A stretch of 64,000 nucleotides of DNA, taken from Flavobacteriales bacterium (GTDB lineage Bacteria; Bacteroidota; Bacteroidia; Flavobacteriales_F; PHOS-HE28). The notes under the pieces are model-generated. The model did not search any database and was not told where the DNA came from. It saw nothing but the letters and a program-made list of their open reading frames with translations. The stretch covers positions 1 through 64,000 of the forward strand of contig JAGFIV010000100.1 in the NCBI GenBank assembly GCA_024103275.1, in the 5' to 3' direction. This document shows, piece by piece, positions 26,046-27,081 of the stretch; the stretch's first letter is position 1, and each line of letters begins with the position of its first letter. A program made the position numbers and the translations under genes.

Positions 26046-26831
26046 ATGGCCCGCAACCTCCTCCTGAACGACCGGGTGATCTTCGCCCTGATCATCATCA
26101 ATGCCGCGGCCATCTTCATCGCCGGCTTCCCGCAGGTGGACCCGGCGCTGAAACAGGCGCTGGCCGGGGTGGACCACGCCATTACCATCGCCTTCGTGCT
26201 GGAGGCCGCCTTCAAGATCCGCCGCGACGGCTGGCACGGGTACGTCCGCGATGGCTGGAATGTGTTCGACTTCATCCTGGTGGCCCTGGCCCTGCCATCC
26301 CTGGCCGGCCTGTTCCTGGGCGGCGACATGGAGGGCTACGGCATCTTCCTGGTGCTGCGGGCCGCACGCGTGGTGAAGCTGCTGCGCACGGTGCGCTTCT
26401 TTCCCCGCGTGGATGAGCTCGTCTCGGGCGTGGTGCGCGCGGCCAAGGCCTCCTTCGTGGTCCTCATCGCCTTCCTCATCACCCTGCTCATCGCCGCCCT
26501 GTTCAGCCAGCGGCTGTTCGCCACCCTGTCGCCGGAGCACTTCGGCGACCCGGCCAAGGCGCTCTATTCCACGTTCAAGATCTTCACCGTGGAAGGGTGG
26601 TTCGACATACCGGACGAGATCACCGCACCCCTGCCCACGCTGTCGCGCATCCTTGCCCGGGCTTGGTTCATCCTCATCCTCATGGGCGGCGGCATCTTCG
26701 GCCTATCGCTGGTCAACTCCATCTTCGTGGATGCCATGGTGGCCGACAACAACGATGCGCTGGAAGCCAAGGTGGACGCGCTGGCGGAGGAGATCCGGCG
26801 GCTGCGGGAGCGGCTGGGTGAGCGCACCTGA
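26046..26831 (+). CDS. Voltage-gated-like ion transporter (ion_trans superfamily)
   Basis: 261 residues, one six-helix domain. S1-S3 are hydrophobic with WNVFDFILVALALP as S3. S4 carries spaced Arg/Lys (LRAARVVKLLRTVRFF). The pore loop reads FKIFTVEGWFDIPDEI, with TVEGW in the position of the TLESW filter of bacterial sodium channels. A C-terminal coiled coil (LEAKVDALAEEIRRLRERLG) would hold the tetramer together. Likely a cation channel of the inner membrane; ion selectivity is inferred from the single filter Glu only. Confidence 0.88.
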   Translation: MARNLLLNDRVIFALIIINAAAIFIAGFPQVDPALKQALAGVDHAITIAFVLEAAFKIRRDGWHGYVRDGWNVFDFILVALALPSLAGLFLGGDMEGYGIFLVLRAARVVKLLRTVRFFPRVDELVSGVVRAAKASFVVLIAFLITLLIAALFSQRLFATLSPEHFGDPAKALYSTFKIFTVEGWFDIPDEITAPLPTLSRILARAWFILILMGGGIFGLSLVNSIFVDAMVADNNDALEAKVDALAEEIRRLRERLGERT

Positions 26832-27081
26832 CCCGGTGTCCCAGGGCTATCGCGTCTTCATTCATCAACGGTCATGACTTCGGCAAAGGGGTAGGAACAG
26901 CAGGCCCAGCGTGCGTTCCTTGCTCCGCGGACCGCCGCTCGCTTTGGTCCGCCCCCTTGCCCTGGGCCCGCCGTTCGGCGGGCACCAGGGGGACAGGATT
27001 GCCGCACGCTGGGCCTGCTGTTCCGGCACATTCCCAGTACTGGCGGGAGAAATAAGACGCGATAGCCCTGCCCGGTGTCCC
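26832..27081. mobile_element. MITE-like palindromic element with 11-bp flanking direct repeats
   Basis: The direct repeat CCCGGTGTCCC occurs at 26832-26842 and again at 27071-27081. Between them lie inverted arms AGGGCTATCGCGTCTT (26843-26858 and 27054-27069), a second inverted pair GGAACAGCAGGCCCAGCGTG (26894-26913; complement at 27005-27024) and a central hairpin GGGCCCGCCG-TTCG-GCGGGC. There is no ORF of note. The layout is that of a non-autonomous transposon with an 11-bp target duplication. Confidence 0.75.

What the first reader, a model, noticed from the sequence alone, without database searches (positions are those of the whole stretch)
26832..27081. MITE-like element with 11-bp target duplication next to tRNA-Leu
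An 11-bp direct repeat (CCCGGTGTCCC) exactly flanks 228 bases with two nested inverted pairs and a TTCG-capped central hairpin. This is a clear footprint of transposition by an enzyme that makes unusually long target duplications. No transposase is in the window.
Basis: seen in the sequence. Interest (0 to 1): 0.62.

Follow-up and report, generated by a model that had tools for sequence, protein, structure and literature searches.

The report
Miniature transposon with ISAs1-type ends
This is a 229-base miniature transposon with no gene of its own, present in about 20 copies in this genome, whose ends and 10-base target duplications match a known family of bacterial transposons (ISAs1); it is real but of an ordinary kind.

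Summary
The element is 26842-27070 (229 bp), with a 17-bp perfect terminal inverted repeat, CAGGGCTATCGCGTCTT, and a 10-bp target duplication, CCCGGTGTCC (26832-26841 / 27071-27080).

The same draft genome holds 13 long copies (93-97% identical to this one), two arm-altered copies, four 101-bp copies sharing one deletion, and an 86-bp relic. Eleven of 20 carry flanking 10-mers matching at 9 or 10 positions, each different. Relatives lack the element at this locus and at six other loci compared.

The likely mobilising enzyme is identifiable. A sister species carries three 1216-bp insertion sequences with the same 17-bp ends and exact 10-bp duplications, encoding an ISAs1-family transposase (NF033564, 371 bits). 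Published ISAs1 hallmarks (14-22-bp ends starting CAGGG, 10-bp duplication) fit. The window's own assembly has no such transposase, so the family looks orphaned.

The nested hairpins show no compensatory changes, so an RNA function is not supported. It is a new member of a known kind.

The parts
26832..26841 (.). left copy of the 10-bp target duplication CCCGGTGTCC, starting directly after the stop codon of the ion-channel gene
26842..27070 (+). miniature element, 229 bp, no transposase gene
   Evidence: ends fixed by comparison of 19 copies
26842..26858 (+). left terminal inverted repeat CAGGGCTATCGCGTCTT, identical to the ends of the 1216-bp ISAs1-type IS in G004
26894..26915 (+). left inner arm GGAACAGCAGGCCCAGCGTGCG
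26966..26983 (+). central hairpin GCCCGCC-GTTC-GGCGGGC
27003..27024 (-). right inner arm, perfect complement of the left inner arm
27054..27070 (-). right terminal inverted repeat
27071..27080 (.). right copy of the target duplication CCCGGTGTCC

Best explanation
It is a MITE, a non-autonomous transposon that keeps only the ends recognised by an ISAs1-family DDE transposase. The transposase, supplied in trans by a full-length ISAs1-type insertion sequence, recognises the CAGGGCTATCGCGTCTT ends and inserts the element at a target cut with a 10-base stagger; gap repair leaves the 10-bp duplication. Shown: many copies with separate insertion sites and 10-bp duplications, absence of the element from the orthologous intervals compared, and identical ends and duplication length in ISAs1 insertion sequences of a sister species. 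Inferred: that this transposase, or a close relative now lost from or not assembled in this genome, did the moving, and that the interior is passive.
For: 13 long copies plus two arm-altered, four short and one relic in the same genome. Eleven of 20 have flanking 10-mers matching at 9 or 10 positions, against at most 7 in 20000 random re-pairings. The element is absent before tRNA-Leu in relatives and at six other orthologous loci. G004 has three 1216-bp IS with the same 17-bp ends and exact 10-bp duplications, encoding an ISAs1 transposase; G065 has a 73%-identical one in a 1218-bp element. ISAs1 ends start with CAGGG, are 14-22 bp, and give a 10-bp duplication (PMC11946415).
Against: No ISAs1 transposase in the window's own assembly, so the mobiliser is not seen in the same cell. 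The element shares only its terminal 17-18 bp with the IS. Empty sites are not base-exact, because the intergenic DNA has diverged.
Confidence: 0.92

Rival explanations
1. It is a MITE, but moved by another transposase family that makes long duplications (for example an IS4-group enzyme), and the match to ISAs1 ends is convergence.
For: The own genome has no ISAs1 transposase but does have one DDE_Tnp_1 gene with a DUF4372 domain.
Against: 17 identical terminal bases and the same 10-bp duplication in complete ISAs1 elements of the same genus; no such ends near the DUF4372 gene.
Confidence: 0.05
2. It is a mobile element whose folded RNA or DNA has been kept for a host function, for example RNA processing, termination or protection between the ion-channel gene and tRNA-Leu.
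For: Very stable fold, z -9.1; nested palindromes also in other miniature families of the genus.
Against: 0 of 76 consensus pairs show a compensatory change and several are broken; no Rfam family above threshold; the other copies do not share the gene context; the 101-bp form, without the paired inner arms, also carries its own duplications.
Confidence: 0.03
3. The direct repeat and palindromes are a chance arrangement or a fixed feature of the tRNA locus, not an insertion.
For: None found.
Against: About 20 copies in one genome; unique repeat spacing in the window; absent from the tRNA-Leu leaders of relatives.
Confidence: 0.002

Closest known systems
ISAs1-family insertion sequences (NCBIfam NF033564; Pfam PF13808 + PF01609), represented by the 1216-bp elements of G004
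   Same: Identical 17-bp terminal inverted repeat and 10-bp target duplication
   Different: The window element is 229 bp, has no transposase gene and shares nothing with the IS beyond the ends
Other miniature elements with CAGGGCTATCG ends in the same genus (G004, G028, G022, G031, G006)
   Same: Same first 11 bases at most of their ends (single-base variants in G028, G006 and one G004 element), mostly 10-bp duplications, nested palindromic interiors in many
   Different: End variants such as CGGGTC and CGCCTC and visibly different interiors (not aligned against each other here); the window family was found in no other genome searched
MITEPye1 of Paracoccus yeei (ends of the IS1182 family; PMC11578231)
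   Same: Small transposase-free element with IS-like ends, direct repeats, intergenic sites and a long stem-loop fold
   Different: Different IS family; 1-3 copies per chromosome there

Membership tests
MITE (non-autonomous DNA transposon) | short (under 500 bp), no transposase gene | tested here: met
   229 bp; ORFs over it are not confined to it, and it shares no 12-mer with the IS outside the ends
MITE (non-autonomous DNA transposon) | terminal inverted repeats | tested here: met
   17 bp perfect
MITE (non-autonomous DNA transposon) | multiple dispersed copies with target duplications | tested here: met
   20 places; 11 with 9-10 of 10 matching flanks
MITE (non-autonomous DNA transposon) | empty site in relatives | tested here: met
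   element absent at the orthologous intervals compared, though not base-exact
ISAs1-type ends | 14-22-bp inverted repeat starting CAGGG | tested here: met
   17 bp, CAGGGCTATCGCGTCTT; definition from PMC11946415
ISAs1-type ends | 10-bp target duplication | tested here: met
   CCCGGTGTCC on both sides
ISAs1-type ends | same ends on a complete IS with an ISAs1 transposase | tested here: met
   three copies in G004
ISAs1-type ends | mobilising IS present in the same genome | tested here: not met
   no match in G000, a draft assembly estimated complete
ISAs1-type ends | the transposase moves this element in trans | not testable with these tools
   needs a transposition assay

The most novel reading that the evidence does not exclude
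In this genus several miniature families with ISAs1-type ends carry different but repeatedly nested-palindromic interiors, which could mean that palindromic interiors are actively favoured, for example by helping excision or copying as a hairpin, rather than being passive cargo.
Probability: 0.07. Interest if true: 0.5.

Novelty: new member of a known kind. Interest (0 to 1): 0.24.

Why it matters
It ties a set of transposase-free miniature elements in uncultured Flavobacteriales to a specific transposase family, and shows that target duplications can flag misjoined contigs or recombination in draft genomes. I found no description of MITEs with ISAs1 ends in the few open-access papers searched, but the kind itself is well known.

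Tried and rejected
RNA function: no Rfam match above threshold, no covariation, and the 101-bp form, without the paired inner arms, also has its own duplications. Mobilisation by the own genome's DUF4372 transposase: no matching ends near it. Internal-deletion origin from the known IS: only the terminal 17-18 bp are shared. Spread to other named genomes: the subterminal pattern has no exact match in the genome collection, though the own genome may be left out there. A promoter or terminator in the element: none found by the scan; one weak terminator-like site lies just outside it. Base-exact empty sites: intergenic DNA too diverged.

Full report
Observation. The repeat structure is as described. 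CCCGGTGTCCC occurs at 26832-26842 and 27071-27081, with outer inverted arms at 26842-26863 / 27049-27070 and perfect 22-bp inner arms at 26894-26915 / 27003-27024. No other exact 10-bp repeat at that spacing exists in the window. The element folds far better than shuffles (z -9.1).

Boundaries. Comparing 19 copies shows that the element begins CAGGG and ends CCCTG (one left end reads CGGGG, one is garbled near a contig end, and one right end reads TCCTG). It therefore spans 26842-27070 (229 bp) and the duplication is 10 bp, CCCGGTGTCC.

Copies. The draft genome (3.58 Mb, 137 contigs) has 13 long copies, the other 12 being 93-97% identical to the one in the window. It also has one copy whose outer arms are swapped relative to the core (C90), one arm-altered copy next to a contig end (C106), four 101-bp copies that share one deletion junction, and an 86-bp relic (C9). 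Twelve of the 13 long copies differ from their consensus at 3-8 of about 229 positions and one at 15, so the expansion is not brand new. Three of the short copies have their own duplications, which implies that the ends suffice for movement. The C90 arrangement is what recombination between the perfect 22-bp inner arms would produce (inference).

Insertion. Flanking 10-mers match at 9 or 10 positions in 11 of 20 copies; random re-pairing never gave more than 7 in 20000 trials. Orthologous places lack the element. The 110 bp before tRNA-Leu in 28 relatives contain no CAGGGCTATCG end (read). In G002, G013 and G022 tRNA-Gly and tRNA-Leu lie about 250-300 bp apart, too close to hold the ion-channel gene between them. 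Loci C108, C131, C68, C78, C58 and C90 also lack the element in G002, G019 or G028. The intergenic DNA is too diverged for base-exact empty sites.

Mobiliser. A sister species, G004, has three 1216-bp elements with exactly the same 17-bp ends and exact 10-bp duplications, and two 245-bp miniature elements with the same ends. The 1216-bp elements encode a transposase of the ISAs1 family (368 aa used as query; NF033564 371 bits against a cut-off of 70; PF13808 and PF01609). G065 has a 73%-identical one in a 1218-bp element. Named records with the 19-bp end CAGGGCTATCGCGTCTTAA are all Flavobacteriales MAGs; two of them, ACE_NR_BACT18 and ACE_BAC33, contain pairs 1.2 kb apart. Published ISAs1 features are 14-22-bp ends starting CAGGG and a 10-bp duplication (PMC11946415). 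The window's own assembly has no ISAs1 transposase and only one DDE_Tnp_1 gene, of another type, with no such ends near it.

Interior. Outside the ends the element shares no 12-mer with the IS. No consensus pair shows a compensatory change, and no Rfam family reaches its threshold in the element, so an RNA role is not supported. Other miniature families in the genus have different interiors by eye, many also nested palindromes.

Context. The left duplication starts directly after the stop codon of an ion-channel gene (PF00520) and the element ends 47 bp before tRNA-Leu. The other copies do not share this context, so proximity to the tRNA looks incidental. No change of a promoter or terminator was shown.

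Assembly caution. Most copies without matching duplications share a flank or a 10-mer with another copy. C30's left 140 bp is 139/140 identical to C37c's left flank, and C98's right end is 46/47 identical to C24's. C86 and C37d each join flanks whose duplications pair with two different copies. Either the copies recombined or contigs were misjoined at the repeat. The copy in the window has a clean exact duplication.

Verdict. A genuine MITE family with ISAs1 ends, probably orphaned in this host. New member of a known kind, modest interest.

Noticed in passing
G000 contigs C37:77986-78215 and C86:15222-15450 (outside the window): Copies whose two flanking 10-mers pair with those of different copies (C106/C26s and C30/C98), a sign of recombination between copies or of misjoined contigs in the draft assembly.
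   Followed up: partly
G000 contig C30:1-140 and the last 48 bases of C98 (outside the window): Contig ends that are 139/140 and 46/47 identical to the flanks of other copies, which looks like assembly carry-over at the repeat.
   Followed up: partly
window 26046-26831: The ion-channel gene (PF00520) lies between tRNA-Gly and tRNA-Leu here. In G002, G013 and G022 the two tRNAs are too close to hold it, while in G004 a related gene lies between tRNA-Leu and the glutamyl-tRNA-synthetase-like gene.
   Followed up: partly
L063 2052-2275 (G000:C90:97551-97774): A copy whose outer arms are swapped relative to the core, with its own exact 10-bp duplication; recombination between the inner 22-bp arms would explain it.
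   Followed up: partly
L083-L086, L089-L094, L096-L098 and L048:4999-5231: Several other miniature elements with ISAs1-like ends in the genus, with different interiors by eye, many nested-palindromic.
   Followed up: partly
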